DNA from: Allacma fusca
Taxonomy: Eukaryota; Arthropoda; Collembola; Symphypleona; Sminthuridae
Length of the DNA stretch: 64,000 nt
NCBI GenBank assembly: GCA_947179485.1
Contig: OX359245.1
Location: 62,979,067-63,043,066, forward strand
Reading direction: 5' to 3'
Notes under the pieces: model-generated
What the model was told of the DNA's origin: nothing
What the model saw: the letters and a program-made list of their open reading frames with translations, nothing else
The model's database searches: none
Program-made: the position numbers and the translations under genes
Shown: positions 29,319 to 58,073 of the stretch, in pieces
How the letters are laid out: every line of letters begins with the position of its first letter
Position numbering within the stretch: the first letter of the stretch is position 1

Positions 29319-29888
29319 TGTTACGTTGCTATCACCCGGGTATTGATGTTGTGTGGGTAATAGTAATGTAGCCTAGGTTCGGGTGTTCCATCCCCTGAAT
29401 TCCTGGAATCCGATGTTGTTGGAAACGCATGAATAAATGGAACTTATTGAATTCTGTGTGTAGTTCGTTTTATTAACTTTTGGCCAATTTATTGTTCCTA
29501 AACTGATACAATTTACACTGAACAATTAACATTTAACACAAAATAGAATTTGAATTCTGAATCTCTTCTTCCATGAAATCTCCGATTTCATGTCGCCCCG
29601 CTTGCTACCTGTGGAGATCCATCCCGGAGGGAATGGACTCTAGGTGCGGCTCCTCTTGATGTTGCTTGCTTGAAGTCGAGATTAGAACTTGTACTTAATC
29701 TACGTGTCTTAATCTAAATCTAATCTTATCCTATTCTTAGTTTATTGTTTATTAAATAATCTGAATCATTTCCTTATAATTATGTTATGTCAGCGTTTGG
29801 CGTCACGTAGCCTCTGCTTACGACCTTCCAAACTATTTGCTGACTTAGATTATGCTTATTCTACTCTATTTATAATATATCCGTAACA
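29319..29888 (-). repeat. 3' LTR (570 bp)
   Basis: Starts TG and ends CA with the 7 bp inverted termini TGTTACG/CGTAACA. I found no difference from 57500-58069 on reading both. The minus strand contains AATAAA at 29753-29741 (two overlapping sites in ttaataaacaataaac) and another near 29473-29468, candidate polyadenylation signals. Confidence 0.97.
29741..29753 (-). terminator. Candidate polyadenylation signals in the 3' LTR
   Basis: Minus strand reads AATAAACAATAAAC, two AATAAA hexamers a few bases apart, inside the LTR where an R-region poly(A) signal is expected. The cleavage site cannot be placed from sequence. Confidence 0.45.
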
Positions 29889-29900
29889 TTCCTCTTCTGG
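29889..29900 (-). promoter_or_regulatory. Polypurine tract (plus-strand primer)
   Basis: Minus strand CCAGAAGAGGAA directly abuts the 3' LTR (…GGAA|TGTTACG), the canonical place for the plus-strand DNA primer of LTR elements. The same CAGAAGAGGA word occurs twice inside the element near 40909 and 41005. Confidence 0.85.
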
Positions 29901-32566
29901 GTAATTGTCGACCTCGACAATGTCATCTATCGAAGTTCAAGTTCATATTATTTGTAATTATACTAATTCTATTTTTGTTACCATACTTTGTAGCTTAATC
30001 TTGGTCGTAATGGTAATGGTTGGTCTTTGTAGCATGGTCGTAATGGTATTCATGGGCATTCTTATTGTTAAGGCATTGCATACAATTTTTATACATGTTC
30101 ATCATCATATGTGTATATACTTTTTGTAATGCTGTACAATATTTGATGGTGTTATTGTTTGTATACTGTTGTGAAAGTTCTTCTTATAATCTTAGATCTT
30201 AGAATCGTTGCACAACAAAATAGGTGTTACAATTTGCATATACAATATTTACATGGAATACATCGTTATTTACATCATCATCTAACTTGATTTCTACTGT
30301 TATTTATCGTATCTAAGATTAGAAACATCGTAGCAGAATTGAAAATTTTGTACACGCAATTATAATATGTCTAAACATGAATTTGAAGCTTGAAAGATAC
30401 ACTAAAATACTATGTTTTGAAAAGAATTTGTTTGTAAAAACTGGCAAGATTACTTGAAGGCAGATATGAAACATTGTCCCTTGTTTCTATGCTCCTTTGA
30501 TTTCTAAATTTTCTCTGATACTAAATACTAGTTGTTGAAACATTGTGACTACTGTCAGTTACTGCTATTACTGGGGTAGTGGCCTAATGTATTTTTAAAG
30601 GTGTATTTTAATTATTAAGCTTGTAAAATCCCGTGAGTTTCCTTGTAAAACAATTTAATGTGTCACAGACAAATCGTTGTGGGGAAAATTTTTGTCAAAA
30701 ACTGTGATTGCTCAATATCACTATCAACGTTATGAAGTGACGGTCTTGAGCGCAAGTGTCTTAATGTCGCTCTTGGTTACAAAAATATTTTGTAGAAACA
30801 CAGTGTGTGTGTCCCCTTGTTGTTAAACAAGAAAATAACAGAGAATGTCAAAACAATTTGGACTTGTTATTTGGTAGCTAGATTAGGAATTATGTCCTTC
30901 TTATGCACAACTGTTGGCAATTTCACCAAATGTGAAAACATCGTGCTCCATGAAGTTCTGTAAGCGGTTCTTACTATTCCATAAGACATAAATCATATTG
31001 TACCGTTAACTATTTCCTCAATTGAGATAAGAATGTATTTTGGCGATAATCATGAATATATATATATACCTTGATCTGTAAAAAATCTTATTTGATGAAA
31101 TGTGTCAAATTTGTAAGTTAAATTTTCTGTTTAAGCAAATGCTCCTTTGCGTTCGAAAAATTTTTAAAGATTTCTTTCAGAATTGTTGGACAATTTATAT
31201 TTAAGAAAACACAATTTATCTTGGAAAACTATGGAATTTATCATATCTAATAAGACGTTTGATCTTTTAAGATTTAAGACTGATCCTGTTTACTGGATAA
31301 ATGAAGTGAGTTTAGTGATTCCGTAAACCTGATTTTGTCATGTATAAAGTATTTGTCATGAGTGAGTGTCAAAAGTATGTACTCAACATTGTAAAAAGAT
31401 GTCAATACTGTTTGCAATGTAGATCTTAGCTGCCTTTAAACTCGCGATTTAAAATACGAAATTGCTCTAGCATATGTGGATGATAAATTAATCATGTCAT
31501 GTAACTGTTTCCATTACTGTAATTTTCTTACTTTTTATATTTTTATTTAAGTTCCTCCTACCTATTCGTATTGTGTATTTTTGTTTATTTTTCTGGTCCC
31601 TATAGGATATCTAGTGCTCCTAGGATCCTTCAGATCTGGGCACATTCATGTCAACTTTCATTTGAAATGCGATACATTTTGCAAGTAAATAATTTTGTAA
31701 ACGAACATAGTGTATTACAGAAATTCTTTTGGAAGAATCTATCCTTTGAACTTTCGTTTTACTTAATCTGTTTTCTAGGTACCTAAAATATTAGCACGTC
31801 TAGCTAAATAGATTTTGTTAAACTGAAGCTAAGAGGTAAACTGATCCTGATCGTAGAGAACTTGCTTATACAGGGTCTGATTTTTGCTGGAAATTTGGTA
31901 TCCCGCTCATCTTAAGCGATGAGTAGGTTAGAAATTTAAATTTATCCTTCTCATATGGAGTTGAATAACCTAATAAAGTCACAAGGCATTACAATCATCA
32001 CTCATTGGCTGCAGAGTAAACAAGCCTCTAGGAATTATAATCGGCCAAATATTTTGGTTAGAACTGAACCTTATCTTGAAACATTTTTTGTCTCGTTAAC
32101 AAATAAATCTTTGTTTTCAAAACATAGCCTGCCTTGATAGGTTGACATTCAATGAAAATCTAATTACTGGAATCAATGGGGTGGAAAGAAAATTGGAAAG
32201 AAAATGGATAATGAATCCATCGAGACACGAAAGATATTTTGATTTGAATCACATATTCTTTAGACTATTTTTCCTTTTACTCCTATTGGGGATCTGCCTC
32301 TTTAACTAACTTGAACTTTTCGTTCGTTATTTGAACTTTGTTATTTTCATTTTGCATTTTTATATTTTTGTTATATATGAACTTGGTTTTCTATATTTTC
32401 TCTTCCTAACCTTATCCTACTTATAACTACTTATTCTATTATTTTTCTAATACTATCTTATAATTAAGAAATATTTTTAATTATTTTTCCATACAATTTT
32501 TATGGTTTTGTGTATTTTTCTTCGTTGTTTTCTTTCTTGCGTTGGTCCTTCCCGGTTGGGTCGGTG
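29901..32566 (-). other. 3' untranslated region of the LTR element, 2.7 kb
   Basis: AT-rich with long T runs on the plus strand. No sense-strand ORF of note. A 74-codon antisense frame at 29905-30129 is hydrophobic but lies over the PPT-proximal region on the wrong strand and is not called. The function of so long a 3' UTR is unknown. Confidence 0.7.
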
Positions 32567-33292
32567 TTATAGTTGTACGGTTGCTCTGGTTGTGTGTCGG
32601 TTGGGCTGCTGTTGTGTATTGGGCCGCACTATTCTGCATCCAACTAATTGTTCTATAGAATTTTGGACTAATGCCTGCGTGTCTGCAACATTGTCTAATT
32701 CTCTCTCATTCGGTGTTTGTTGGTTTGATTTCTTTTTCTGCATTCGAATTCGGTACAGTATTACTGTGAATATAAATATCACTATTGTGGTAATACAACC
32801 GAATGAACTAATAATGACTACGGTGTAATCCGTGTCTGATGTTGGAACCTCATTGGATTTCCAATCTATTTCGTTGAATTGGTCCATCCATGGTGGTCTG
32901 CTATCCCTCTGCATGATGGGCTGTTGGTTTTGTATGAATTGGGGTTGGGGTTGTAGTAAAGCCATTTGTTGGTTCCTTTCCATGATTCTCTGGGCTTCTA
33001 CGTTCGGGTCGTTCGGGTCGTACTGCACTACGGCTAGTTTCCCGTCATCTTTGTGGTGTAGTATATGTACTATTGGGTCCTTTTGTGATAACACTGATGC
33101 TGTGATAGCTCCGCTTCCGACGGTTATGGCTGGTACCATGTAATTTGCGAACCATTTTCCGACTTGAGTTCCTAAGGCTGCCATCAGTGGTCCTCCCCAT
33201 GGTTCTGGACTTGGTTGTGCTATCGGTCTGGTTTCGGAAACGTCCATTGCAATTAGAGTTATTGCAAGGCTCAAAAGATTTTGGCACTTCAT
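32567..33292 (-). CDS. ORF4: 241-residue type I membrane protein, envelope-like position
   Basis: Residues 1-20 form a signal peptide (MKCQNLLSLAITLIAMDVSE). A Gly/Ala-rich hydrophobic patch follows (about 36-68), then a polar, Gln-rich ectodomain (about 70-150). Residues 157-180 form a strong membrane span (VVIISSFGCITTIVIFIFTV) followed by a basic stop (RIRMQKKK) and a ~60-residue cytoplasmic tail. The topology is type I. Its place as the last gene before the 3' LTR is that of env in retroviruses and errantiviruses, but I see no known fusion-protein motif and cannot assign a family. An acceptor-like site lies 6 nt upstream of the ATG, so it is probably made from a spliced RNA. Confidence 0.8.
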   Translation of the reverse strand: MKCQNLLSLAITLIAMDVSETRPIAQPSPEPWGGPLMAALGTQVGKWFANYMVPAITVGSGAITASVLSQKDPIVHILHHKDDGKLAVVQYDPNDPNVEAQRIMERNQQMALLQPQPQFIQNQQPIMQRDSRPPWMDQFNEIDWKSNEVPTSDTDYTVVIISSFGCITTIVIFIFTVILYRIRMQKKKSNQQTPNERELDNVADTQALVQNSIEQLVGCRIVRPNTQQQPNRHTTRATVQL

Positions 33293-33866
33293 TTTTCACT
33301 ATGTGAAAAAATTTTTGTGTTACTGTTCTTTATCTCTGAGTAGTCTCAAGTATTTTGAGCTCTCTGTGGTTGTTGAGGTTGTAATGAGTACTCTGTTTCA
33401 AGAGTCTCTTATTTATATCAATTAATTGTTTGTGTTTTCATCTTCCGATTGCGAAAGAGAATTCTTTTCCTAATTCCGATGTTGTAATCCGTATGTCCCA
33501 CTTCCGGTGACATAGTCTTTTATTAGTATTTCTATCCTATGAACTCTATAAAATGTGTTAGTAAGTAAAATATTTTTGTTTTGTTTTCTATTTTGTATTT
33601 TATTTTTATTTGTTTTTCTTTTCTAACTATTCTGTTATGGTGATCATTATGTAACATCCGCCGTAATCCCGATGGTTGATGCTGCATAAGATCTTAAAAA
33701 TGTTTTATCGTAGATCCTCTCTTGCGAAATAATCTACACTTTACATTCCCTTCGGGAATTTCTTCCGTCATCAGGTAATTTGGCTTCTGCTTTTCCCCGC
33801 TAGTTCTCTTTCTCTTTATACCATGACCTGGATGAAATGGTCAGGTTATTATCCTCTGTGACGTTT
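33293..33866 (-). other. Gap between ORF3 and ORF4
   Basis: 574 bp of AT-rich non-coding sequence. Its main feature is the T-rich tract and AG just before ORF4 (33299-33312). Confidence 0.6.
33299..33315 (-). promoter_or_regulatory. Candidate splice acceptor for ORF4
   Basis: Minus strand aaaattttttcacatag, a polypyrimidine tract plus AG, ending at 33299; the ORF4 ATG follows after 6 nt. Placement agrees with a spliced subgenomic RNA. Not experimentally shown. Confidence 0.5.
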
Positions 33867-36800
33867 TTAATCGTCTTCCTCGGACGGCCCTCTGAGGGTG
33901 CCTGTCTCCTCCTCTCCTTCCGCTAGTGTTCGGAATGATATAACTGCGAATCTATTCTCGGATAAAATCTCCGGGTCCCATCTTGCCCGTTCTGATCTTT
34001 CCCATAACTGATCCATTAGCCTTCTATGCTCCACAGGGTTTGTTATAGAAAGATAGCTGGTTCTTTGTTGTGTTACTGGGTCTCTCCTGAGTTCTTCCTG
34101 AATAAAATCATGTCCAAGGTCTCGAAAAACTATTTCGATTCCTGTTCGACCTCTGAGGGTTCGTATGAGATTTATTATGTCGGGTTCATCTGGTCTTCCA
34201 TCAATGACAACTGACCGCCATTGGGGTGTTTGAAATCGATCTATAGCGCTTGGTACCATGTGTATTGGTGTTATTCCTGGTCGTCTCTCATTTCTTGGCG
34301 ATAATTGATATGGTTTATAACTTGGTCCATCTCCACGGTTGCTGATTTGCTCCCGAATCCTGTGAAAGTGTTCTCTTTGCCAGATTCGTATCGTGACAAG
34401 TTCGTTTAGGTCTCTGAAGGAACCTGTTTTCCGAGGTTGTCTTAGGGTGGCTACTCCTCCTTTTAGTTTTCTAGCATATAGAGTAGTTGGCTTTTGGCCT
34501 TCCCCTGCTAGTTTCATTGCGAATATCCAGTCTTCCCATTGTCCTAGTTCTTCTTCTATGTCGTCTATTGGATTGGGTTGACTTCTGCCGCTTTGGTTTA
34601 CTGCTCCAAATTGTCGCCACTCCTGAATTGCCTCGTCCTGATGATGCAGAGTTATGAGCCTTCCGGTCATACTCGCAAATTCTTGAAAACTTAGCATGTG
34701 TATTGGTATACTTGCTAGTTGTTGTAAAGCTTTCTCTCCACGTCCGGTGATGGCGTCTCCTCTCAGTAGGAAACTATTTATCCATATTTCTTGCTCTCGC
34801 CAGGTTGGCTGAGTTCCTATGTCGAACCACATCTGAGTAATTAATCTGCGTAGCTCGGTTCCCGTTAGCCCTTGCATTACTCCTTGATGTTCCCGACATG
34901 TTAGGTATGTTGGTACTTGGTGATTGTCAATACCTCTTTGACCATTGAACAGTGTTGTCCAAAGTCTCGGTATCATTTCCCCTGGTGAGATGTTCATGTC
35001 TCCTGCCATCGTTTCTAGACGGGTGTTTTCCATTGGTACGTTTCTTCGACTTTGCCCGTATAGGATGAGCAGGTCTCGCTCCCTTGGGTCTAGTCTGCGA
35101 TAATCTGTGGGATGGTCCATTGCATCATACAGCAATGCCCTTCTTTCCCGGATTAATTCTCCGTGGTTGTTGTAATCTATTCCTGCCTGATGTTCGGCGT
35201 ATTCTATATTTGATTCATGAGCATCTGTTCTGGGTTCGCTTAAGGTGCTAAGCGCCCTTTGTAACTGCTCGAGTCGTAGTTGAGGTGGTTGGGTAGGTTG
35301 TTGGTGGATGTCAAGTCTCTCGATAAATGTCTCCCTGTACATTCTGTTGAGCCATCTCACTAGATTTTGTTCTGGACTGTTGGTTGAACGATGTGAGATA
35401 TTATATGTTGGAAATCTCTCTGGGTCGATGGTAGATTTCTGATAACAATGAGGACACATTGTGGCTCTTTCCCTGGTGTCCATGTTGTTACTGAAGTAGT
35501 TGGTTCTCCTGGAGTACTGCTCTTCTATCCGGCCATGGCGTTCGTCTCCAGATATATCTTCCATTACTTGGTCCGGAAATCTTGGCGGTGGTGAGTGGTC
35601 CAATGGGTCATTGGCCCTTTCCATCATCTTTCTCACTTGAAGTCGCACCGGATCCAGTTGGCTGTATAGCTGTGTCTTGTTTGGGTTGGTAAAGATGATT
35701 ATTTCCGCATCCTCATCTTCCCAACTTGGTGCTACCATCCATCCACGGATTCCTATGTAAAATGATACGTGAGCTAAATCAACGAATCTTACATCAGGTG
35801 AGTCGGGTTGTGCCAGTGGATCTGCCGGTGCTGGAGCTGGTGGGTCTTCCTGGCGTTCTTCCTTAACCTCCACCTTTCGTTGACGTTGTCTAGCTCGTCT
35901 GGACTTCAGGTTGTCTTCAATGGGTGGTATGGATTGTCCTGCTATCGCGGATGGTCCGGGTGATGGTGACCTTGATCCTCGTCTGTCCCTCGTATCGTTG
36001 AAGATTACAGTCCTAATGGGTGAGTATACTCTAACCCTGGGTCGTCCAATTTCTGGCTCTGGACCTCGTTGTCGTCCTCTACGCTGGAATGTACAGTTTG
36101 GAGCATTGTTTCTTCCGTACAGTCTATCCAACTCTGGTCTACTCCTTCGGATGTATTGTACAGGTATATCTTTTTGTCTTTGCCAAGCTTCATGTGCTGC
36201 TAACTTGGTCTTTGGTCTTACGGGTGGCTTGTGGCCGTGTTTGAGTGGGCAGTATTCACATCTGGTCCTCACCCACTTGCTGTTTGTCTCGTTGTCTGAC
36301 GAACTATCTATCTGATGTTCTGATGGTGGCTTCTCCTCGTCGTCTAAGACTTCCTCCTTGATTATATTCAATGATGTCCCGGCTCCTTCTTCTTGAGCCT
36401 CCACAGCTTGTTCCGTTGGCACAGCCGGTTCCTCTTCTGAGGCCAAAACCGGTCCTTCTGCTCCCTCTGTCCTTCGTGGGTGGCTTCTTCCGGGGTCGCC
36501 TTTCCGTATTGGGTCCTGGTTCCCTCCGAAGTCCATTCCAACGGACGTGCCAATATAGATTACCATTCTGAGGGTAAATCGCACAAGCTGTTGAATAATC
36601 CCTGTAGGTCTTCCTGACGATGAGTGAGCCTCCTCTTCCTCAATCCGTGCCAGCATAAGCTGTAGCTGTTGTTTCAAGAATTGTCTGCTATAACTGACGG
36701 GTGACCATGCGTTGGTCGGTCCTACGAATGCCTCTCGCCTCTGTCGTTCTCTGGCTGCCCGGTCCGACGTTCGCTGGAAGAGTGGGTGGGTTTGTGAGAC

Positions 36801-40436: not shown

Positions 40437-40629
40437 CTGGTTGAAGATAAAATACTTTGCAGTAATCTGATTTAATGATTGTGTACGTACCTACGTATCG
40501 GATTCTCCTTCGACCTTGTCGTATGAGGTAACTAATGAGATTTATACGGTCTCCAATCTTGAGATCAATCTCGCTTTGACCAAAACTAACACAGTTTGGT
40601 ATTGTTGTTAAGTATCTGGTGGTGCTCAT
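40303..40629 (-). CDS. Possible 108-residue ORF bridging pol and ORF3
   Basis: Its ATG (40629) overlaps the TGA of the preceding coiled-coil ORF as ATGA and lies 6 nt after the Pol stop, which would suit termination-reinitiation. Residues ~20-50 (IDLKIGDRINLISYLIRQGR ... YVGTYTIIKS) look like a small beta-barrel, and the tail is Arg-rich. The C-terminal part overlaps the start of ORF3 in another frame. A donor-like AGGTACGT lies within it. It may be real or a spacer. Confidence 0.35.
   Translation of the reverse strand: MSTTRYLTTIPNCVSFGQSEIDLKIGDRINLISYLIRQGRRRIRYVGTYTIIKSDYCKVFYLQPDVREQRVTCIRVSNQRDSTPRRPTRRRQGRRRSTTLLDPIRESN
40437..40455 (-). promoter_or_regulatory. Candidate splice acceptor at the ORF3 start
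   Basis: Minus strand attttatcttcaaccag ends at 40437; the next three bases are the ORF3 ATG. A branch-like attactgc lies ~20 nt upstream. Confidence 0.5.
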
Positions 40630-40889
40630 TCGCTTTCAGACTGATCCAAATCTTCTCGTCCTCTTTCGGGTACGAGTTGGGTATCGTCTACTTTCTCCGG
40701 TTTCTTCAGCGCTTCCTTCTTGAGGTGTTTCCCCTGCTTCTTTAACTCCCGAATTTCCTCCTGAACTTGTTGAAGTTCCTGTTGGATTTGTACTCGTCGG
40801 GTTCTGAGGATCGCTGACTGTCTCTCGGTGATCTGACGTATTCGTTCTAATTCTCTCAGGCCTTCTGGGACTGTCTTTCGTGATGACAT
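40626..40889 (-). CDS. Nested coiled-coil ORF e (87 aa)
   Basis: ATG-initiated, in the -1/+2 frame relative to Pol and the same frame as the four other nested ORFs. Residues ~10-60 (RELERIRQITERQSAILRTR ... LQQVQEEIRELKKQ) show heptad-spaced Leu/Ile typical of a coiled coil; the tail is acidic. Last of five such ORFs, ending with an ATGA overlap to the next small ORF. Purine-rich DNA can mimic coiled coils, so independent support is needed. Confidence 0.45.
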   Translation of the reverse strand: MSSRKTVPEGLRELERIRQITERQSAILRTRRVQIQQELQQVQEEIRELKKQGKHLKKEALKKPEKVDDTQLVPERGREDLDQSESE

Positions 40890-47811: not shown

Positions 47812-47831
47812 TTTTTCTTGGATATCTTCAA

Positions 47832-50800
47832 TTACTGGGGGTGCGTCCCCCTCTGTGAGTTTCCCGACGGATATGGGCTAGACTGTCTTTTGTGTGGGCA
47901 GTTTCTCCTCAGGTGGCCCATCTCTCCACATCCGAAACACTTTAGGTCGGTTTGAGTGGATTCTAGCGCCAATTGTCCCGGTATCGGTTGTGACTGCTCC
48001 TGGCGGTCTGGTTGATTTCTCCAGGAGTTGTTTCTGTCGTTGCTTTGGCTGTTCCGGTCCCTGGAGTTAGTTCTACTCCTGTTGTTATTGTTGTTGTACT
48101 GTTGGGGTCGTTGCCCTCCTTGGTTATTGTTGGGCTGATAACCCTGGTTCTGGTAACCTTGTGGGTTGGCCTGGATTTGTTGCATGCCAGGGTTGGCGTA
48201 CCCTGTATTCTGTCCTGGACCGTATCCTTGTTGTGGTACGTATCCTTGAGATGGTCCATACCCTTGGGTAGGTGCATAACCTTGAAACGGTGCATAACCC
48301 TGTTGTGGTGGGTATCCTTGATTCGGATTAAACCCTTGAGGTGGCATAAAGCCTTGAGTTTGATTAAATCCTTGGCTGTTATAGCCGTTGTAGGATTGGT
48401 TGTACCCTTGGTTCATCTGTTGGTCATTCCACTGACGATTTCCCTGGTTGTTAGGGTTGTTGTTGTAGTATTGTCGGTTCGGACTTTGTCTAGATCCGAA
48501 GTTTTGGTTCCGCTGCGGGTAACCTTGGTTGTTGGAGCTGTTGCCATCATTTCTGTACTGAGGCCTACTCCTGTCTTGATTATTGTAGAATCTCTCAGCT
48601 GTCGGAGATCTACCTCGGTTCCCATAATTTCTTCGGTCATCGTAACCTTGATTGTTACGTCCCCTGTCCGGGTAGTTGCTATTGTTGCTGTAACCTGGAC
48701 TGGAATTTCGTGAGTTGTTGAAGTTTCCCTGACCTGGACTTCGTCCTCGTTGGTCATTAGATCTATTTTCAGGTCTCCGATAGTCCTGTTGTTCTCTTAT
48801 TGCCGCTACTTTGACGACGGTTGTTTCCGTTGGAACTGGTTTCATTCCGGAGGTCAATTTCTCCAACATTTCTTGGACTTTGGCAAATCTTGTCTCAATA
48901 GATTCCGCGCCGTCCGTCTTTCGGTCTTCATCATACTGCTTGATTCCCTCTATGAAATCTGCTACCGTTCCTGCAGTCCATCCTCGGCAGAAAACTATGT
49001 ATTCGGATGTTAAACCTGCGCGTAAGAGTCTGATTTTCTCCAGTTCGGGCATAAATCTGTCGACTCTATTGATTAGTGCTAATTTCGCATCTATGTATGC
49101 GCATGGATCTTCATCCGTATTCATCTTTCGCTTTTCCATTAGTGTACGTATCATTTGGTCGGTGATACTGTACCTTATTAGAAATTCCTCCCTGAATTCG
49201 TCCCAGTTAATGGTGTCGTAGGGTAGTTCCTCATGTAGTCTTCGTTCGGCAATCCAATTTCTGATCCAATCCCTGACGGGTGGGTCAAAGATGATCTGTA
49301 CGTATTGCATCCTAGTTATGATGGTATCTCCTCCGAACCTGTTGGTTTGGAGTTCGGCTGTTGCGAAAGCTGTCTCTGGGTCATCTACACCCGGTTTGAA
49401 TTCTACTTTGGGAAACATGAGGGCGGTCATGTCGTCGTCCAGATGTCTCCTTGGAATTATTCGTACTTGTTCTTGGTCTGCAACTTCCTCAATACGTATT
49501 CCCTGATTGCGATTGAGTGGTACGTATGGGTTGATGATGTTAACGTTGACCTGGTTGAAGAAATTATTTCTGTTCACAATCTGTCTATTCCTCCAGTTGT
49601 CGAAGGCCTCGAAGTCGTGAGGGTTACTTGAGTTGCTACTACTGGAGCTGGATGATGAGCTACTTCCTCCGGAACTTTCGGGGTCACTCCTTGCTCTCTG
49701 TCTTCCTCCGATGTGTCTACCTCCTCTTGCGCCTCCTCGACCTGGATTTGACCTTGATTGTGATGGTCGCTGGTTGTGGGAGTTGTTGTTGTTGTTAGCT
49801 CCTCTCGGCTGGTTTCCTCTCCCTGATCCACTTGGTCCTGGGCCTGGTGGTCTGTGTTGGTTATTTCCAATTTGACGGCGTGCTCGTAAGGGTTTACGTC
49901 TCTTTCTGACTTGCGTAAGTACAACTTGAGTTTCCGGACTAAGGTCTTGAAGTCGGATTCTTGGGAAGAAGTGAGTTTCTCCAGTATTATCCACGAATCG
50001 AACTTCCTCTTGTAGTTCTTCGTCTCTTTCGATGGCTCTAAACGCAGCGTCGTAGGCGTCGTCTATAGGGATTCTTATGGTAAACTGACCTGGTACTTCT
50101 GGGATAATGAAGTCCTCTTCGTCAATTCCAATAAAAATATGGTCTGTCTCTTCACTAGACTGTGTACTGTTGTGCTGATCACTCTCACGTCTCGGAGTGT
50201 CTCTCTGGATGATTCGCTCCACTTCCTCTTCACTAGACGTATCCGTCAGGATTTCGACGCTACGGTCGTGGACTAATCTACTCAACGCCTCTTGGTGGTC
50301 GTATTCGTTCTCGATGTTTTCCAAGAAGCCTGGTGGTACTCTCTGTCTGCGAACGCCGTTCGGTAGACTGATGTGTCGATGGTAAAGTCTGAAGTTGGGT
50401 GCGATGTAGCTGGAGATCTGCCCTGGATCTAAAGATCTTCGGGTGATTATATTCCAGAAGGTAAATATCGGGTGTTCACTCAGAACAATTTCCTCGTGTT
50501 CAGCTCTTGTAGCTGCAAATGCTTCAAAGTTTGAGTCTCTAGCTGGTCTAAACCTTCGTTGTATGATTCCGTCCCTTCTGTTATAGTAGATCAGGCGTCT
50601 CACTTGACCTGTCCAAGTTGCTTCGTTTTCTACCCCCTGGTTTCTGAATCTGTCTTGTTGTCGCGCGATCTTAGAGTATTGTCTTACTGTTATCCTGCTT
50701 GGTACTAACTCGTCTTCGGTTGCTTCGTTCTCGCTGGTGTATACTCTGCCACTTGGTCCTGTCCAAATGTTAACTCCGTATTGTAAGTCGTCAAGCCAAC

Positions 50801-53800
50801 TGACTTTACCTTGACTTGTGGTTGGAGTTGTTGTTACTCGAGATGGTCCTGCTACTGCTGAATTTGGTCTGACGGGGACAGCTGGAGCTGTCGGTGTCGT
50901 TGGTCGGTTTGCTGACCTGGTTATGAACCTTCCGGTTGGTCTAGCTGGTACTGCAAAAGTCGTTGCTGCACGTATCGTAGATGCAGGTGTTGCTGTCCGT
51001 GACCTTAAGGTGTCACCTTGGACGTACGACTCGTTGCTTCTAGATGTTTGTTCTGAAGGTGGTGGTTGTGGTGCTGTTACAAGCTCTCCACCTTCTATGA
51101 TGGTCCTGTCGTTGTTGGTTGCTCGTTGCAGGATGTCTCGACCTCGTAAACTGTGGCGGTGTATACCTGTGCGTCTTATCGGTAGGCTGTTGTATAACGA
51201 GCCTCTCGGTGATTGATAGACGGTAAACCTGTCTTGGGGTCTAAATGCCTGATAGTAAGTACCTGTGTCAGAATTTCTGATGATATTTGCAATAGTCAAT
51301 GACGGATTCTGTTCCCGTAGTTGTCTCCCTACTTGCACCAATGTTCTTAAAGCTGTTTCACTAACGTCAAGTGGCGGTGCTCGCAACGCGTGCACGGGTG
51401 GATGTACGTAGATTCGACCTCCCGGTGACTGGTAAACTCGGTGTACCAGTTGGTCGTTACTGTCTACCTGGGTGGAATCTGTGTTGACGTACAACTTTGT
51501 TGTTGCTAAATCCCTCTTAGCGTTAGCCTGTGATGTACTACCAATTTGGCTGGTCTCGACCTCCTCGGTTGGTGTCTCCAAATCGTCTTGGGTGGGTTGT
51601 GGTCTAAATTGCAGATTAGGTTGAGTTGGTCGGTTCCTTGGCGTATTTTCCGTTGAAACCTGTCTATTCTGACTGGTTGGTGAGATGTGTACTGGGTTAA
51701 TTTGCTGTGTTATTTCGTGAGAGTCGCTGTGTCGGCTTGACTGCCCTCTTTCACCTGTTGCGGGTGTTGAGCGACGGGAATTACTGGACCTCGGGGTCAC
51801 TCTCGGTTGTGCCGTAGAGCTCCCTGTTGGCGTCTGATTACCTGTCTGGACTGTGGGTGATGTAGTGGGTGCTCTTGGGCTACCCTTCTGTATGGCTGTC
51901 TCGCAACGGCTGTTGCTTGGTCTCTCACGTGTCGTAATCCCTTGTGGACTGGTTCTGGGATTTAAGTTGCTGTTTTCCCCAGCACTATTTACCCTGTAAT
52001 GTCTTCTCACCGATTTCTGGAAAAGTTGTGACCTAGGTGATGCGTAATCTACCTGGTTACTGTCCGTCACCTGGTTACTTGGTCTGAGATGGTCACGATC
52101 GGAGTTACTCGACTTCCGATTTCGAGGGGTTGTTAATCCTGCTTGAAGTGTCGCTGAGGCTATTGCCTGGGCTATAGCCTTGTTGATTGAGCTTGAGCTG
52201 GTATTCAAGCTTTCTGGTGAAATCCTTCGTGACGTAACGGGTTGTACTGTAGGTTCGCCTGAGATGTTCCTTAGTGTAGATCTAGATGCTGGTTCTAATA
52301 AACCCGTAACCGGATTCCGTGTTACTGGTGGGTTTCTTTGGTCGTAACTAAGGTACCTGCTAATGATGTCGTCAGCGCTGGAGTCGATTATGCTTTGTTG
52401 GGTGGTCCCGTTGTTAGTTGAATCTTGTTCTGGACCTGGCCTACTCTCGTTGCTGACTCGTCTTTCTTGTCGCTGTTGACCAAATTCTAGATTTTCACTA
52501 AGTCTTCCGGATTGTATCACGGTCGTGTACCTAGGTGTATCGTTGAAGAAAATCTGGCTATCCTGGTGTGCCTGATGACTTCTCAACGACAATACCCGGT
52601 GCTCTAAAAGGTTTCGGATGACGTCTGTGGGGATGAAAATGTTGTCCCTGACGTTCCGACCGTACTCGAAGGCACGTGTACGTAGCACTTCCCTTTCTTC
52701 CCTATTCGGATCTCTGTTATTGTCCCGTCTGTGGGTGACTTCAGCTAATCTAAGGAAAAAATGTGTCCACTGGACTGTACCTGTATAAAGATTTTGAGCT
52801 AACCTGTGATACACCTCTATCAGCTGTCCTTCCAATCCTCGAACTACCAGAAAATTTTCCACTGAGTTCCGTTGGAAGCCTGCTGTGGTCACTAGTTGTT
52901 GAAACGATCCCGCTGGTACTATCACACCTGTACCTGTCACTAACTGTGCGAAATTTTCTTCCACTCTTTGGATGTTATCTTGCCCTTCTCTGATCGGTGG
53001 TAACTGATCCTCGACTGGGCCTTCCTGTTCTGTAGACTCAGACACCCGGCTGAGTGTCCTTTGAAAGCCTATATCTCCTCTATTAAAGAAACCTGGAGAT
53101 GGTCTTGATAGGAACCTATCTCGCACAAGTTGTTGTATGTCTGGTTGTTGAGAAACTATAGTATTCGACTGTGATGATTTACGGTGGTCGCTAATGCTTA
53201 AGTTTGATAACTGCTGATTTAATTGAGTAGTGACCTGGTCACGATCACTCCCTATACTGTTATTAGTACGTGGCACTCCTGCTGGTGAGTCACCTTGTTC
53301 GCTCTGTTCGGTTGACTCGTCCGATTGAGTTATTGCTAAATTATCCCTAAATGATGAGTGCGTACTGAGATTTCCTGGCTGGATAATCTCTGGTGTACTT
53401 GTTGCTATAGCAATTGGTCTATTGGAATCCTCCAACTCATCCAATTCCGTTGAGCTTTGCTGATTAACCTGTTGTTCTGTTTGTCCAGTAGCTTTGCTGC
53501 ACATTCCTTGGCTTTGTACATCCTGTTGGGATTGTACACTCGTGTCTTGAGGAATGTCTCCGTTGCCAACTGGGTTTGTCAGGTTGTTGACAACCACATT
53601 GTTGGGTGATTCATTGGTCACATCTTCCATCTCACTTTCTGGAGTTGCGAATCCTTGCTCGCCTTCCCCTACGCTTGTATGGTTGCTTCCGGGATCCGTG
53701 AGAATTTCAAATGATGACATGGCAGCGCTACTAGTTGGTCTTTCCTCAGGTTGATTGAATTGCGACAGGATTTCCTTGATCGTGGGGTCAGCATCGTGAC

Positions 53801-54401
53801 TGACAAAAACCATGTCTCCTCTAGCATTTAGCATGAATTCGCCTGTGGCCTCAACCTCCTGGGCTTGTTGGACCTGTTGGCCCTCCAGGTTGGTTACCTC
53901 GAGGTCGCGTAATTCTCGTTGCATAGCTAGTCTATGGAGATTCTGTCCTTGCACCACCTTTGTTTTTGAAAACTTTGGTGTTTGTGCTGTCGATACTGTT
54001 GGTGTTCGTTTAGGACTGGTTGCCGTACCTGTTACAGGTGTTGACACCGTGTCCAAGAACACATCCATGCTTTCATCATTATTGTCAGGATTATCTCCGT
54101 GCCCCATGGCCTGCGAGTCCGATGGACTTTGTGCAGATAATGCCAGGGTTGTACTGCCGGATTCTTCCATGACTGTAGATGTCGAAGCTGAAGATGTTGA
54201 AGAGAGGTCTACACCTGCCGTTGCTGTATTAGCTTTGGCTTTTGCTGCTTTTCTCTCTTCTTTCCTACGGGCGAGGATTTCCTCCAAGCCTGTTTCATTC
54301 TGTGGCACTGGTCCTGCCGATCGCGTAGTCCTTCGAGATGGTATTGAAGGTGCAGGTAGTGGTTCCCTTCTTGATGGATGTTGGTTCTTTTCGGGTTCCA
54401 T
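47832..54401 (-). CDS. gag: Gag, 2189 residues, giant N-terminal extension
   Basis: Start ATG 54401, directly after a donor-like CAGGT. Residues 1-~1580 are largely disordered (Ser, Thr, Gln, Pro, Asn rich) with no known domain. They include three loosely repeated YQSPxGxxY-type segments (in VYQSPGGRIYVHPP, VYQSPRGSLYNSLP, TGPSGRVYTSEN) and a poly-Ser run near 1600. About 1655-1830 is a typical retrotransposon capsid (VRDWIRNWIAERRL ... WDEFREEFLIRYS ... LRAGL). About 1985-2085 is a prion-like block of QGYxPxQGY repeats. A CCHC knuckle, CFGCGEMGHLRRNC, sits at ~2151-2164, followed by a short basic tail. Ordinary gypsy Gags have 300-500 residues. It makes the virus-like particle and binds RNA; the role of the extension is unknown. 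Confidence 0.95.
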   Translation of the reverse strand: MEPEKNQHPSRREPLPAPSIPSRRTTRSAGPVPQNETGLEEILARRKEERKAAKAKANTATAGVDLSSTSSASTSTVMEESGSTTLALSAQSPSDSQAMGHGDNPDNNDESMDVFLDTVSTPVTGTATSPKRTPTVSTAQTPKFSKTKVVQGQNLHRLAMQRELRDLEVTNLEGQQVQQAQEVEATGEFMLNARGDMVFVSHDADPTIKEILSQFNQPEERPTSSAAMSSFEILTDPGSNHTSVGEGEQGFATPESEMEDVTNESPNNVVVNNLTNPVGNGDIPQDTSVQSQQDVQSQGMCSKATGQTEQQVNQQSSTELDELEDSNRPIAIATSTPEIIQPGNLSTHSSFRDNLAITQSDESTEQSEQGDSPAGVPRTNNSIGSDRDQVTTQLNQQLSNLSISDHRKSSQSNTIVSQQPDIQQLVRDRFLSRPSPGFFNRGDIGFQRTLSRVSESTEQEGPVEDQLPPIREGQDNIQRVEENFAQLVTGTGVIVPAGSFQQLVTTAGFQRNSVENFLVVRGLEGQLIEVYHRLAQNLYTGTVQWTHFFLRLAEVTHRRDNNRDPNREEREVLRTRAFEYGRNVRDNIFIPTDVIRNLLEHRVLSLRSHQAHQDSQIFFNDTPRYTTVIQSGRLSENLEFGQQRQERRVSNESRPGPEQDSTNNGTTQQSIIDSSADDIISRYLSYDQRNPPVTRNPVTGLLEPASRSTLRNISGEPTVQPVTSRRISPESLNTSSSSINKAIAQAIASATLQAGLTTPRNRKSSNSDRDHLRPSNQVTDSNQVDYASPRSQLFQKSVRRHYRVNSAGENSNLNPRTSPQGITTRERPSNSRCETAIQKGSPRAPTTSPTVQTGNQTPTGSSTAQPRVTPRSSNSRRSTPATGERGQSSRHSDSHEITQQINPVHISPTSQNRQVSTENTPRNRPTQPNLQFRPQPTQDDLETPTEEVETSQIGSTSQANAKRDLATTKLYVNTDSTQVDSNDQLVHRVYQSPGGRIYVHPPVHALRAPPLDVSETALRTLVQVGRQLREQNPSLTIANIIRNSDTGTYYQAFRPQDRFTVYQSPRGSLYNSLPIRRTGIHRHSLRGRDILQRATNNDRTIIEGGELVTAPQPPPSEQTSRSNESYVQGDTLRSRTATPASTIRAATTFAVPARPTGRFITRSANRPTTPTAPAVPVRPNSAVAGPSRVTTTPTTSQGKVSWLDDLQYGVNIWTGPSGRVYTSENEATEDELVPSRITVRQYSKIARQQDRFRNQGVENEATWTGQVRRLIYYNRRDGIIQRRFRPARDSNFEAFAATRAEHEEIVLSEHPIFTFWNIITRRSLDPGQISSYIAPNFRLYHRHISLPNGVRRQRVPPGFLENIENEYDHQEALSRLVHDRSVEILTDTSSEEEVERIIQRDTPRRESDQHNSTQSSEETDHIFIGIDEEDFIIPEVPGQFTIRIPIDDAYDAAFRAIERDEELQEEVRFVDNTGETHFFPRIRLQDLSPETQVVLTQVRKRRKPLRARRQIGNNQHRPPGPGPSGSGRGNQPRGANNNNNSHNQRPSQSRSNPGRGGARGGRHIGGRQRARSDPESSGGSSSSSSSSSSNSSNPHDFEAFDNWRNRQIVNRNNFFNQVNVNIINPYVPLNRNQGIRIEEVADQEQVRIIPRRHLDDDMTALMFPKVEFKPGVDDPETAFATAELQTNRFGGDTIITRMQYVQIIFDPPVRDWIRNWIAERRLHEELPYDTINWDEFREEFLIRYSITDQMIRTLMEKRKMNTDEDPCAYIDAKLALINRVDRFMPELEKIRLLRAGLTSEYIVFCRGWTAGTVADFIEGIKQYDEDRKTDGAESIETRFAKVQEMLEKLTSGMKPVPTETTVVKVAAIREQQDYRRPENRSNDQRGRSPGQGNFNNSRNSSPGYSNNSNYPDRGRNNQGYDDRRNYGNRGRSPTAERFYNNQDRSRPQYRNDGNSSNNQGYPQRNQNFGSRQSPNRQYYNNNPNNQGNRQWNDQQMNQGYNQSYNGYNSQGFNQTQGFMPPQGFNPNQGYPPQQGYAPFQGYAPTQGYGPSQGYVPQQGYGPGQNTGYANPGMQQIQANPQGYQNQGYQPNNNQGGQRPQQYNNNNNRSRTNSRDRNSQSNDRNNSWRNQPDRQEQSQPIPGQLALESTQTDLKCFGCGEMGHLRRNCPHKRQSSPYPSGNSQRGTHPQ
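47837..47865 (-). promoter_or_regulatory. Gag-Pol -1 ribosomal frameshift signal
   Basis: The heptamer G GGA AAC lies at 47865-47859 in the gag frame, of the X XXY YYZ type. It is followed by a 7 nt spacer (TCACAGA) and a GGGGG-ACGCA-CCCCC stem-loop (47851-47837). Gag stops at 47832. The Pol frame is open across this region, from a TAG at 47880-47878, and needs exactly a -1 shift to continue from gag. GGGAAAC is a known slippery heptamer of some retroviral gag-pro junctions. Confidence 0.88.
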
Positions 54402-54407
54402 ACCTGT
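54398..54407 (-). promoter_or_regulatory. Candidate splice donor overlapping the gag start
   Basis: Minus strand TTTACAG|GTATGG: the GT is followed at once by the ATG of gag. Splicing here would remove the gag start codon and could join the leader to the ORF3 or ORF4 acceptors. The match to consensus is moderate. Confidence 0.45.
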
Positions 54408-54739
54408 AAACGTCCTAACTTTTTCTTGATGGGCTGAAAAATGCTAAGGCGTTTCGTAGAGTTTGGTTTTATGAATTTATTTTGACGGTTGTGAGAGTTC
54501 TTTTGTCAAATCCCAATCCTGAAAACCTTCTTAAAACTTATGCCAAATTTCAACTTAAACCGTTTCCTAAAATTTTGCCTTGTATGCCTATGTTTATGTA
54601 ACTCTAGTTGTTAAACTTAATTGTGCCAATTGGCGATGAGAACTTGAAAAGAAATTTTCTGTGCTTATAACCTAAGTGTTCAATCCCTGAACGTCCCTAA
54701 CTTTAGCTGTGAATCGTCTTAAAATCTAATCTCTATAAT

Positions 54740-55020
54740 CCTAACGTTTCTAATGAGTACCTTCTGGTGTTACCACCTGAATTTCCTTAAAACCTAAACT
54801 TTCTAATCTTACTTTCCTTTAAAACTTATTCCTTCTTTAAAACCTAACTACTTTTAAACTTACTTCCCTTAGAACCTAAACTCCTTAAAACATATTCCCC
54901 TTAAAACTTACTGTCCTTTAAAACTTAACCTTCCCTAAACTTAATCTCCTTAATCCTATCCTCCTTAAAACTTAGCGCTCTTTAACTTACTCACCTTAAA
55001 ACTTAACCGTTTTACAATAA
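54740..55020 (-). repeat. CCTTAAAACTTA degenerate tandem array
   Basis: About a dozen irregular copies of ccttaaaacttact-like words (plus strand), spaced ~20-25 bp: ccttaaaacctaaac, cctttaaaacttattcc, ccttaaaacatattcc, ccttaaaacttactg. In the sense RNA they read AAGTTTTAAGG, a self-complementary core (TTTAAA/TTTTAA). Confidence 0.7.
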
Positions 55021-55500
55021 CTTATTTGCAATGGCTAGTTGCGTCTAACTCCTTAAATTATCAGTCTTTGTCAATCAACACTCCTCACATTCGGGCTGGT
55101 GTTGCCTAAATTCCCTAAATACTCCTGTAATGATTCCCAGAATTAATAAGGACTGTATTCCTCGCTACTAATTACCCTTCTGTCCCAAAGGATATGTTTC
55201 GCGTCCTAATTCGTACCTAAGAACTTCCTTGAACCGATCCTACCATCAGCAAGGCTTGTATCTGTTGTAGACAGCAAAAACTGAAAGCACCAGAATTTAC
55301 TGAATTCCTATCCCTATAACCAACTCTCAAAAGCCATGAGCCTGTGGTTTCTTATGCCAAATCTCTCTACTCTAGCAAAATCCTTCGAGAATGGCTAATC
55401 TTATGATGCACTCAAAACCATGAGTCATCTATGGAAGAAGTAATAAATATGAAAGTCCCTATGTATGGCCATAGCTGGAAACCGCATACATAGATTTTAA

Positions 55501-56830
55501 AGTGAACCTCCGTGCTTTGGAATGTCCCCTGTTATCCTATCCACTAAACCATGGACCTCCTTACTAGTAATAGTCATTGCTGTTACCTATCCGCTAGCTT
55601 GGGCACATTACAAACATATACCTATATCGGTGCGTCAATCATAGCCTCTCCGATTACCTCTAGTAGGTCACAGGCTTATCGGTACTTTTGTCGGCACTCC
55701 ATCCGAACACCTCCGTGCTTGGAATGACTCGAACCCTACTAAACCATAAGGTCCCTCCTAATCTTCCTAGCCTCTCGGATTCTACGTATACTAAACTTAT
55801 ACACAACAATGATTCCGCTCACATTTCGGCCCTTGAATCCCTAAAAACTACGTAGATGAGAATTTTCTTATATGTATGCTTATGTACTATACCAATGTGT
55901 CCACGCTCAATGTACCTCGGCCCTTTGGACTAAATTTTGTTCAAACCTTAATTAAACTGTCCTAATCACCTCGGTGCTCATATTCGGCCCTCCCGAGTAA
56001 TTTTGCTCACCTTACATACTATAGTCTTTAGATGGTCTGATCTACCTATGCTCTCTAACTGAGCTATATAGGTTTTGATTTGCAAAATGACTAACTGAAA
56101 TCTGATATGCTCCGTGCTCACATTCGGCCTTCCGGATTAACTTTAAAAACCTAATATTTGCCAAAACCATGACAAATTATGTCTTAATTACCCAGCGCAC
56201 AAAACGGCATTTCTGGTAGAAATGGAAAGATGGAAGAAGAAAAGATGTTTGTGAAAAGTTTATGATAGATCCTATTGTTACCCGTGTAAACCTACACATC
56301 AGGTAAAGAAAGTAATTTTCAGCGAAAGAGTTTTGATTGGGTTTTGCCACCTAGCCATGGGGCTCTTAATTACGTAATTTGGAGATAAAGAATTTAAAGG
56401 CATCTGTGCTCAGTCCCGGCCCTTCAGATGTGCTTATACTAGAAGGCGAAAAGATGTAGAGAAAGAAGAGAATGAAAAATTATTTTTGAGTTGTTTACTG
56501 AAAGATAGATCATATTGTTGCTTTAAACTAAGCTTGGAAAGTGAATTTTGAGAGTCTTGTATGAATAAAAAATGTCCTAATTAATTGAAAGATTTTAATT
56601 GTGTTTTGGGTTCCTATCCCCTAGCCTGGGGTTTCCCAACACTTTGAAAAGTAATTTGAAGAGTTAAAAAGAATTTCAACGCTCAAAAACGGCCCTTTTG
56701 AAATTAAACTTAAACTTACGAAGAGAAAGATTACTATTATACTGCGCACAAGAACGGCACTTCAGCCGGAATAGTTCCCTTTACAATACGAACACTGTTT
56801 ATGCCTCCGCTCACAACGGCACTTAAGGCG
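55501..56830 (-). repeat. Repeated tRNA-like and AAGGGCCG...GAGCAC motifs
   Basis: In plus-strand reading the word g(t/c)gctca..n..cggcccttn occurs at about 55816, 55904, 55973, 56114, 56406 and 56680, and a variant gcgca..cggca(c/t)tt at 56195, 56744 and (gctca) 56809. Upstream in sense order some are preceded by A-box-like words: TAGCTCAGTTAGAGAGCA (56067-56050), TGGTTTAGTGGATAGGAT (~55551), TGGTTTAGTAGGGTTCGAG (~55750). The last two are followed by cattccaa.gcacggagg. They look like decayed tRNA-derived or tRNA-mimicking units. Confidence 0.55.
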
Positions 56831-57482
56831 TCTAAAAAGATAGAAGAAGACTTATTTTACTGGAAGAAGCTAATTTTGGTGAAAATTTTTATACACACGC
56901 ACCTACTATGTACTCTGAAAACCACAAAATACATATACATATATGCGCAATTTTCTAATTTAAACATATGATTTGTATCTAAACTCTGGTTAATTACTCC
57001 TGAATATTAGCTACGCTTCGTAACTACATTACAAAATCAATATGCTCCTAAACATGAAATTCATGAACCTTAAAGAAAAAATTATATTACCTTATTGGAC
57101 GTCCTCTTCCCCTAATTTTCCGGTTGGAAAGAGTCCCAATTTCACTGGTCACTTAAAATAATATTTCAGGCCTAAAAATAGTTCTTTTTCTAGTGCCGCA
57201 CTAGGACTTCTGAACTGTTATTTGAATCCGCGCGTGATGATAATGGCCAAATTTTCTTTCTTGAGGTAACATTGTTGCATGTTATAACTGCCTTTCACGA
57301 GAAGTTTCGGGTGGCCCTGGAGAGAAATAATAATTTTTCCTCGTATTGAGCCCCATACTTCCATCCCGTGAATTTGTTTGACTAACGACCTTACTTGCTA
57401 CAAAGTTTGGTCTTTTGTCACAGGGTCATCCGCAGGTCCCCGACCTACGGATCCTCCGGGTCCTTACCAAATAAACCCGAAG

Positions 57483-57499
57483 GCCTGGCAGAAACACCA
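57483..57499 (-). promoter_or_regulatory. Primer binding site, tRNA-Val type
   Basis: Minus strand TGGTGTTTCTGCCAGGC begins directly after the 5' LTR. Its first nine bases complement the 3' end ...GAAACACCA of eukaryotic tRNA-Val; the next base is a T where a C would pair perfectly (a G-U wobble), and GCC follows. Confidence 0.7.
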
Positions 57500-58069
57500 T
57501 GTTACGTTGCTATCACCCGGGTATTGATGTTGTGTGGGTAATAGTAATGTAGCCTAGGTTCGGGTGTTCCATCCCCTGAATTCCTGGAATCCGATGTTGT
57601 TGGAAACGCATGAATAAATGGAACTTATTGAATTCTGTGTGTAGTTCGTTTTATTAACTTTTGGCCAATTTATTGTTCCTAAACTGATACAATTTACACT
57701 GAACAATTAACATTTAACACAAAATAGAATTTGAATTCTGAATCTCTTCTTCCATGAAATCTCCGATTTCATGTCGCCCCGCTTGCTACCTGTGGAGATC
57801 CATCCCGGAGGGAATGGACTCTAGGTGCGGCTCCTCTTGATGTTGCTTGCTTGAAGTCGAGATTAGAACTTGTACTTAATCTACGTGTCTTAATCTAAAT
57901 CTAATCTTATCCTATTCTTAGTTTATTGTTTATTAAATAATCTGAATCATTTCCTTATAATTATGTTATGTCAGCGTTTGGCGTCACGTAGCCTCTGCTT
58001 ACGACCTTCCAAACTATTTGCTGACTTAGATTATGCTTATTCTACTCTATTTATAATATATCCGTAACA
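57500..58069 (-). repeat. 5' LTR (570 bp)
   Basis: Identical by eye to 29319-29888. TG...CA ends, flanked on its outer side by the ATAT target duplication at 58070-58073. Near its outer end the minus strand has TATAAATAG (58055-58047). Confidence 0.97.
58047..58055 (-). promoter_or_regulatory. TATA-like box near the LTR edge
   Basis: Minus strand TATAAATAG, only ~14 nt from the start of the LTR. If used, the U3 region would be very short (about 45 nt) and R/U5 would fill most of the LTR. Alternatively the promoter is internal or TATA-less. Confidence 0.35.
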
Positions 58070-58073
58070 ATAT

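What the first reader, a model, noticed from the sequence alone, without database searches (positions are those of the whole stretch)
29319..58069. A 28.75 kb, apparently intact and very recent Ty3/gypsy retrotransposon
Both 570 bp LTRs look identical, the ATAT target duplication is exact, and all major ORFs and Pol catalytic residues are intact. Gypsy-group elements are usually 5-10 kb, so this is an extreme size class, comparable only to the giant gypsy elements reported from planarians and the large Ogre elements of plants. Reverse transcribing and packaging a ~28 kb RNA raises real mechanistic questions.
Basis: partly seen in the sequence, partly recalled or inferred. Interest (0 to 1): 0.95.

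Follow-up and report, generated by a model that had tools for sequence, protein, structure and literature searches.

The report
Giant springtail retrotransposon with orphan genes
A springtail genome carries many copies of a 28.7-kilobase jumping gene, several times the usual size, whose extra-large proteins are kept intact by selection although one of them resembles nothing found in the databases searched.

Summary
Confirmed and extended. Window 29319-58069 (minus strand) is a complete Ty3/gypsy (Metaviridae) element: two identical 570-bp LTRs, ATAT target duplication, a 27.6-kb internal region. It encodes a 2,203-aa Gag frame, a 2,413-aa Pol frame entered through a canonical -1 frameshift signal (GGGAAAC plus hairpin), an orphan 2,207-aa ORF3 and a small membrane-protein-like ORF4. 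The host is very likely the springtail Allacma fusca. Of 150 scored Gag matches in its genome 116 are of this family; 67 of 92 scored Pol frames and 65 of 72 scored ORF3 frames are full length. Eight of ten other LTR pairs fetched are identical too: a recent multi-copy family, not an assembly chimera. The extra coding parts tested are under purifying selection (pN/pS 0.15 in ORF3, 0.21 in the first 1,014 residues of Gag, 0.27 in the Pol linker). A second lineage, 50% identical in ORF3, has the same gene plan; a third has a ~2,020-aa Gag. Two word-filtered searches of 5.8 billion proteins found no relative of ORF3. Unlike planarian Burro, size comes from expanded Gag and Pol plus orphan genes, with no recognised captured domain. 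ORF3/ORF4 may be envelope-like: inferred, not shown. New variant of a known kind.

The parts
29315..29318 (.). target-site duplication ATAT, left copy
   Evidence: 4-bp duplications also at the 9 free-standing of 10 other pairs read
29319..29888 (-). 3' LTR, 570 bp
   Evidence: identical to 57500-58069
29889..29898 (-). polypurine tract AGAAGAGGAA before the 3' LTR
   Evidence: the same tract stands next to the 3' LTR in the flanks printed
29899..32566 (-). 3' untranslated region, 2.7 kb, A-rich
32567..33292 (-). ORF4, 241 aa: signal-like N-terminus, hydrophobic stretch, strong transmembrane-like helix (residues 160-178)
   Evidence: 54% identical homologue in lineage B
33867..40436 (-). ORF3, 2,189 aa from first ATG (2,207 stop to stop), orphan; Arg/Ser-rich N-terminal part with a Cys-His cluster, middle part with hydrophobic segments, sequons and dibasic sites, conserved C-terminal part
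   Evidence: pN/pS 0.150
40636..47877 (-). Pol open frame (2,413 aa)
47416..47712 (-). aspartic protease domain (Pol frame residues 56-154)
   Evidence: LDSGA at 47664
46183..46665 (-). reverse transcriptase core (residues 405-565), YLDD at 46338
45583..45966 (-). RNase H (residues 638-765)
43558..45510 (-). linker between RNase H and integrase (gap 629 aa; median 59 aa)
   Evidence: pN/pS 0.27 on the stretch 43400-45520
42511..43554 (-). integrase: zinc domain, D-D-E core, GPF motif, p58 C-terminal domain
40636..42510 (-). about 620-aa polar C-terminal tail of Pol
   Evidence: its selection was not tested
47837..47865 (-). -1 frameshift signal: slippery GGGAAAC (47865-47859), 7-nt spacer, hairpin GGGGG-ACGCA-CCCCC
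   Evidence: present in 20 of 20 other copies
47832..54401 (-). Gag, 2,189 aa from first ATG: about 1,600-aa N-terminal extension, capsid-like region, CCHC knuckle at 47939-47898
54402..57486 (-). leader, about 3.1 kb; 46 ATGs between the start of the 5' LTR and Gag
57487..57499 (-). primer-binding site TGGTGTTTCTGCC directly after the 5' LTR
57500..58069 (-). 5' LTR, 570 bp
58070..58073 (.). target-site duplication ATAT, right copy

Best explanation
It is one young, apparently complete copy of a multi-copy family of giant autonomous LTR retrotransposons (Metaviridae, Ty3/gypsy) in the springtail Allacma fusca. Inferred cycle: the 5' LTR drives a transcript of about 28.2 kb; Gag is translated from it; a fraction of ribosomes slips -1 at GGGAAAC before a hairpin and makes Gag-Pol (signal shown, slippage inferred); protease cuts the polyprotein; a tRNA primes minus-strand synthesis next to the 5' LTR and the polypurine tract primes the plus strand; integrase inserts the cDNA at ATAT-like sites with a 4-bp duplication (footprint shown). 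The size comes from a Gag extension of about 1,600 aa, a 630-aa linker and a 620-aa tail in Pol, and two downstream genes, ORF3 and ORF4, which have their own starts and so need a spliced or other subgenomic message (inferred). Selection shows that ORF3, ORF4, the start of Gag and most of the linker are functional protein. My best guess for the ORF3 middle part plus ORF4 is a membrane or envelope-like module, and for the Gag extension a role in building a particle able to hold the long RNA (both inferred, about 0.4 each).
For: LTRs, TSD, PBS, PPT. Gag, PR, RT, RH, IN with motifs. Frameshift site in the right phase, in 20 of 20 other copies. Family: LTR 40 of 307 candidates scored, 26 of them in 13 pairs about 28 kb apart; Gag 150 of 319 scored, 116 of this family by my grouping; full-length frames: Gag 76 of the 113 rows tallied (3 fragments left out), Pol 67 of 92, ORF3 65 of 72. 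Eight of ten fetched LTR pairs have 0 differences. pN/pS: ORF3 0.150 (19 sequences), first 1,014 residues of Gag 0.213 and Pol linker 0.266 (11 each), ORF4 0.390. Same plan in lineage B: ORF3 50%, ORF4 54%, RT 89% identical.
Against: No expression, particle or protein data. Primer site: 9 of 10 other copies read TGATGTTTCTGCC, so the third base does not pair with a CCA end. Two of ten LTR pairs differ at 18 and 17 sites. ORF3 and ORF4 match no known envelope, ORF3 has few cysteines in its middle part, and its structure predictions were useless (pLDDT 33 and 37). Counts come from best-scoring hits and so favour intact copies. The pN/pS counts use no tree.
Confidence: 0.88

Rival explanations
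1. An endogenous retrovirus-like agent: ORF3 (middle part) and ORF4 are an envelope of an unknown fold, and the family spreads between cells or animals.
For: Between lineages A and B, ORF3 keeps three sequons (982, 1021, 1198) and three R-x-K/R-R sites (1046, 1142, 1249) in the middle part, after hydrophobic segments near 805 and 917 found in both; ORF4 has a signal-like start and a strong transmembrane-like helix in the window, and the aligned stretch in B looks hydrophobic too (by eye). Gene order gag-pol-downstream ORFs is that of retroviruses (recalled).
Against: No similarity to any envelope or fusion protein in Pfam or PDB; ORF3 is 10% Arg, so R-x-K/R-R arises often (8 in A, 10 in B, 5 in shared columns); only 5 of 13 sequons are shared; few cysteines in the middle part; the secretory-like part lies inside a long, basic, low-complexity protein.
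Confidence: 0.35
2. An ordinary LTR element enlarged by capture of host genes.
For: LTR elements do capture ORFs downstream of pol (review passages).
Against: No host-like domain above cut-off in Gag, Pol extras, ORF3 or ORF4 (weak sub-threshold transmembrane-type matches for ORF4); no relative of ORF3 among 7,970 and 3,521 scored candidates; plan shared with a second lineage 50% identical in ORF3.
Confidence: 0.08
3. Assembly artefact: nested or chimeric insertions joined into one apparent element.
For: Contig N50 of the published assembly is 1.0 Mb (PMC10427803) and repeats are hard to assemble.
Against: Ten other pairs of the same length and ends, 9 of them free-standing, full-length frames in many copies, matched TSDs and copy-specific identical LTR pairs.
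Confidence: 0.01
4. The extra coding is non-functional padding that happens to be open.
For: Low-complexity, Arg/Ser/Gln-rich composition.
Against: pN/pS 0.09-0.26 along ORF3 in full 200-codon steps and 0.15-0.30 along the Gag start in 150-codon steps; 65 of 72 scored ORF3 frames open over 2,200 codons. The middle of the Pol linker is the weakest part (0.47-0.56). The Pol tail was not tested.
Confidence: 0.03

Closest known systems
Burro / GYPSM1 giant gypsy elements of planarians
   Same: Ty3/gypsy-like, total over 30 kb, thousands of copies, much coding beyond gag and pol (review PMC6431247, passages)
   Different: Burro has one 4,873-aa ORF1 polyprotein with a typical N-terminal Gag and BIR, BCL2, MATH, ankyrin and env-like parts before PR; here 570-bp LTRs, separate Gag and Pol frames joined by -1 frameshift, the extension N-terminal to the capsid-like part, extra genes after pol, and none of those domains
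Ogre elements of plants
   Same: giant Ty3/gypsy elements
   Different: Ogre owes its size mostly to LTRs of 1.9-6.5 kb beside an 11-13 kb internal region; here 27.6 kb internal
Ordinary arthropod and metagenome Ty3/gypsy elements (Cordylochernes scorpioides and others)
   Same: RT-RH about 40-44% identical in the best rows, IN 26-38% (45 of 122 rows printed)
   Different: RNase H-integrase gap: median 59 aa over 121 rows, window included, next largest 447, against 629 here. The own genome also holds ordinary Pol frames of 1,180-1,557 aa
Errantiviruses (gypsy, 17.6, 297)
   Same: 4-bp TSD with AT-rich preference, a third gene after pol; the ATAT target of 17.6/297 and this comparison are recalled, from no call
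   Different: no F-type envelope found; far larger

Membership tests
Metaviridae (Ty3/gypsy) | LTRs with TG...CA ends and short TSD | tested here: met
Metaviridae (Ty3/gypsy) | domain order PR-RT-RH-IN | tested here: met
   best solved relative is Ty3
Metaviridae (Ty3/gypsy) | Gag with capsid and zinc knuckle | tested here: inconclusive
   CCHC just above cut-off (20.9 against 20.8 bits); Retrotrans_gag below cut-off (13.4 against 24.1 bits)
Metaviridae (Ty3/gypsy) | tRNA primer-binding site next to 5' LTR | tested here: inconclusive
   window site pairs 13 nt with the end of a tRNA-like gene plus CCA; the pattern had 3 matches against 1 for its control, and 1 of the 3 lies in a tRNA-like gene; 9 of 10 other copies differ at base 3
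Burro | single giant Gag-Pol polyprotein frame | tested here: not met
   two frames with -1 shift
Burro | BIR, BCL2, MATH, ankyrin domains | tested here: not met
Ogre | very long LTRs | tested here: not met
   570 bp
Ogre | extra ORF before gag (recalled as an Ogre trait) | tested here: not met
   longest frame in the leader 59 aa
Errantivirus / retrovirus-like | recognisable envelope gene | tested here: not met
   no match for ORF3 or ORF4 above cut-off (ORF4 was not run against PDB); an unknown envelope cannot be excluded
Errantivirus / retrovirus-like | infectious particles | not testable with these tools
   needs experiment

The most novel reading that the evidence does not exclude
A springtail lineage of giant retrovirus-like elements with a proteome of its own: ORF3 and ORF4 are an envelope or entry module of a new kind, the Gag extension builds an outsized particle, and the reverse transcriptase copies a 28-kb RNA, about coronavirus length (recalled), with no proofreading domain found, accurately enough to keep about 21 kb of coding sequence intact in dozens of copies.
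Probability: 0.3. Interest if true: 0.93.

Novelty: new variant of a known kind. Interest (0 to 1): 0.82.

Why it matters
A 27.6-kb internal region exceeds the 25 kb given for Burro in the 2019 review passages that I saw; later literature was covered only by the searches named. It looks like a second route to gigantism in Ty3/gypsy elements, in an arthropod, with many nearly fresh copies in one chromosome-level genome. That makes old questions testable: how long a genome a reverse transcriptase without proofreading can keep, how a particle holds a 28-kb RNA, and where orphan virus-like genes come from. The host is also thought to eliminate paternal genomes (PMC10427803, part 1 of 3 read), an unusual setting for transposon spread.

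Tried and rejected
Rejected: assembly chimera; host-gene capture; padding without function; Burro or Ogre membership. Self-priming from the element's own RNA: the complement of the first 9-12 bases of the primer site occurs nowhere in the element, that of the first 8 once.

Led nowhere: AlphaFold models of two ORF3 parts; profile comparison of part of ORF3 with ORF4, no similarity; two viral-contig scans, no relative; PDB searches for ORF3 and Gag, nothing useful. The LTRs and full length of lineage B were not found. Whether lineage C has ORF3 was not settled. The RT tree has no clade-labelled references.
Full report
What is there. Window 29319-58069, minus strand, holds an LTR retrotransposon of 28,751 bp. 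The two LTRs are identical over 570 bp, and ATAT flanks both ends. The internal region is 27,611 bp and A-rich on the coding strand (36% A). Four frames are open: 2,203, 2,413, 2,207 and 242 aa. The first carries a CCHC knuckle (just above Pfam's cut-off) and a sub-threshold Retrotrans_gag match near its C-terminus; the second carries protease, RT, RNase H and integrase (rve itself is just below its cut-off, 32.2 against 32.6 bits). LDSGA, YLDD, RNase H motifs, the zinc-binding and D-D-E motifs of integrase and a GPF motif are present. The best solved relative is Ty3.

Frameshift. Gag and Pol overlap by 46 nt and Pol is in the -1 frame (coordinates). GGGAAAC lies in the X-XXY-YYZ phase of Gag, 7 nt before a GGGGG-ACGCA-CCCCC hairpin. 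Heptamer and hairpin are present in 20 of 20 other copies examined. That GGGAAAC is a known slippery heptamer elsewhere is recalled.

Host. The own genome has 392,743,791 bases in 91 contigs. Contig C10 has 66,084,411 bases, exactly the scaffold N50 in the Allacma fusca genome note; C8, C12 and C5 fit chromosomes 2, 4 and X1 to the rounding, C9 and C1 fit X2 and 1 within 10 kb. I take the host to be A. fusca, in a slightly different version of that assembly (95 scaffolds, 392,786,974 bp in the paper). I read part 1 of 3 of that text.

Copies. LTR search: 40 of 307 candidates scored; by my pairing 26 form 13 pairs 28.0-28.3 kb apart (the window's included), 10 form 5 pairs 3.6-34 kb apart, 4 are single. 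RT search: 92 of 2,197 candidates scored, all 98-100% identical; 67 of 92 Pol frames have 2,390 aa or more. ORF3 C-terminal search: 72 of 257 scored, 96-100% identical; 65 of 72 frames have 2,200 aa or more. Gag search: 150 of 319 scored; by my grouping 116 of this family (79-100%), 29 of lineage B (67-74%), 5 of lineage C (57-58%); of 113 of the 116 tallied (3 short fragments left out) 76 have 2,190 aa or more. These counts are lower bounds and lean to intact copies.

LTR pairs. I fetched 10 of the 12 other pairs at about 28 kb, so the sample leans to complete elements. 8 of 10 have no difference between their LTRs; two differ at 18 and 17 sites. One of those two (C8:12178800) has a polypurine tract before its left LTR, so it shares an LTR with a neighbour. 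The other 9 have a 4-bp TSD: ATAT in 7, as in the window, ATAC and GTAT in the other two. At three pairs I shifted the LTR end by one or two bases by eye from the printed flanks.

Selection. ORF3 of 18 of 20 fetched copies plus the window (two broken frames dropped): 931 synonymous and 480 non-synonymous changes, pN/pS 0.150; 0.09-0.26 in full 200-codon steps. Gag, first 1,014 residues, 11 sequences: 0.213. Pol linker, 11 sequences: 0.266, 0.47-0.56 in its middle. ORF4, 21 sequences: 0.390, with unequal starts included, so likely too high. ORF3 pairs are 93.7-98.7% identical at DNA level, yet LTR pairs within a copy are mostly identical: a diverse source population with young insertions. The method counts changes per column and uses no tree, so it is rough. 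The rest of the Gag extension and the Pol tail were not tested.

Lineage B. At C8:9297000-9306999 the same order is found: a Pol tail, an ORF3 of 2,340 aa (50% identical), an ORF4 of 259 aa stop to stop (54% over the aligned part). Its RT is 89% identical over 326 aa. Its Gag frame is 2,261 aa, and 11 of 29 lineage-B hits have 2,256 aa or more without a stop in the match. ORF4 search: 150 of 215 scored, 28 of them at 50-53% (my count). Lineage C: 4 of 5 Gag frames have 2,015-2,020 aa; the rest of it was not seen. So the giant plan is older than the A-B split.

Relatives outside. Pol: 919 proteins at E 1e-10 or less among 7,056 candidates, 120 listed; the best is from the pseudoscorpion Cordylochernes scorpioides, 41% over 30% of the query in its best local alignment. 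RNase H-integrase gap: 629 aa here, median 59 over 121 rows with the window included, next largest 447. In a quick tree of 68 of 122 RT rows the window and B sit on a long branch (1.09) beside P0014, P0021 and P0027 (SH-aLRT 98). No named clade can be given. ORF3: none of 7,970 candidates at E 0.01, none of 3,521 at E 0.1 with an A+B alignment of about its last 600 aa; both searches see only proteins that share short words with the query and have a similar length. The genome also has ordinary Ty3/gypsy Pol frames of 1,180-1,557 aa (38 of 3,557 candidates scored), so size is a trait of this lineage, not of the host.

ORF3 and ORF4. Comparing A and B, ORF3 shares 5 of A's 13 sequons and 5 of A's 8 R-x-K/R-R sites; three of each lie in the middle part (residues 982-1252). 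Hydrophobic segments near 805 and 917 are in both; one near 1288 is among the top five only in B. ORF3 also keeps C498, C503 and C522-x-H-H, followed by a Lys-rich run. ORF4 has a signal-like start and a strong transmembrane-like helix. CAG stands directly before the ORF3 start codon in the window and in 19 of 20 copies (the 20th was not printed); in lineage B a CAG stands four bases before it. I read this as hints of a membrane module and of splicing; neither is shown.

Primer site. The window has TGGTGTTTCTGCC right after the LTR; the end of a tRNA-like gene on C10 (GGCAGAAACA plus CCA) would pair with all 13 bases. The pattern search gave 3 matches against 1 for its control, and 1 of the 3 lies in a tRNA-like gene. 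That gene lies in an array of tRNA-like units with variable anticodon arms, so it may not be the true primer; likeness to tRNA-Val is recalled. In 9 of 10 other copies base 3 is A; in the tenth a TGG precedes TGATGTTTC. Unexplained.

Literature. Searches listed no paper whose title or shown abstract describes a giant element in springtails; only open-licence PMC full texts are covered. Seen: passages of PMC6431247 and PMC11410931, part 1 of 3 of PMC10427803; the rest as listings. The original Burro paper was not read.

Verdict. The observation and its reading hold. What lifts it above a size record is the intact, selected, orphan coding content, shared by at least two lineages.

Noticed in passing
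window 5509-5555 (-): Type I hammerhead ribozyme, 43 bits against a gathering score of 34, outside the element.
   Followed up: no
window 10275-11021: Tandem array of a 137-bp unit, 5.5 copies, 96% matches.
   Followed up: no
L032 (own genome C10 near 56066123): Array of tRNA-like units about 420-515 bp apart with similar ends and variable anticodon arms; 2 units by the default scan, 4 with laxer options.
   Followed up: partly
own genome C1:24783533 and 24811725; C8:12175691 and 12203991: Matches one element length apart (28,192 and 28,300 bp) suggest head-to-tail elements sharing an LTR.
   Followed up: partly
own genome C1:79619412, 79869190, 80098216: Three Gag matches of equal score, and three ORF4 matches (77%) about 12.7 kb further on, 230-250 kb apart: perhaps a segmental duplication holding an older subfamily.
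   Followed up: no
window 54808-55005: Imperfect 16-bp tandem repeat in the leader holding several donor-like GTAAGT or GTGAGT sites.
   Followed up: no
window 57487-57499 and other copies: Primer site base 3 is G in the window but A in 9 of 10 other copies.
   Followed up: partly
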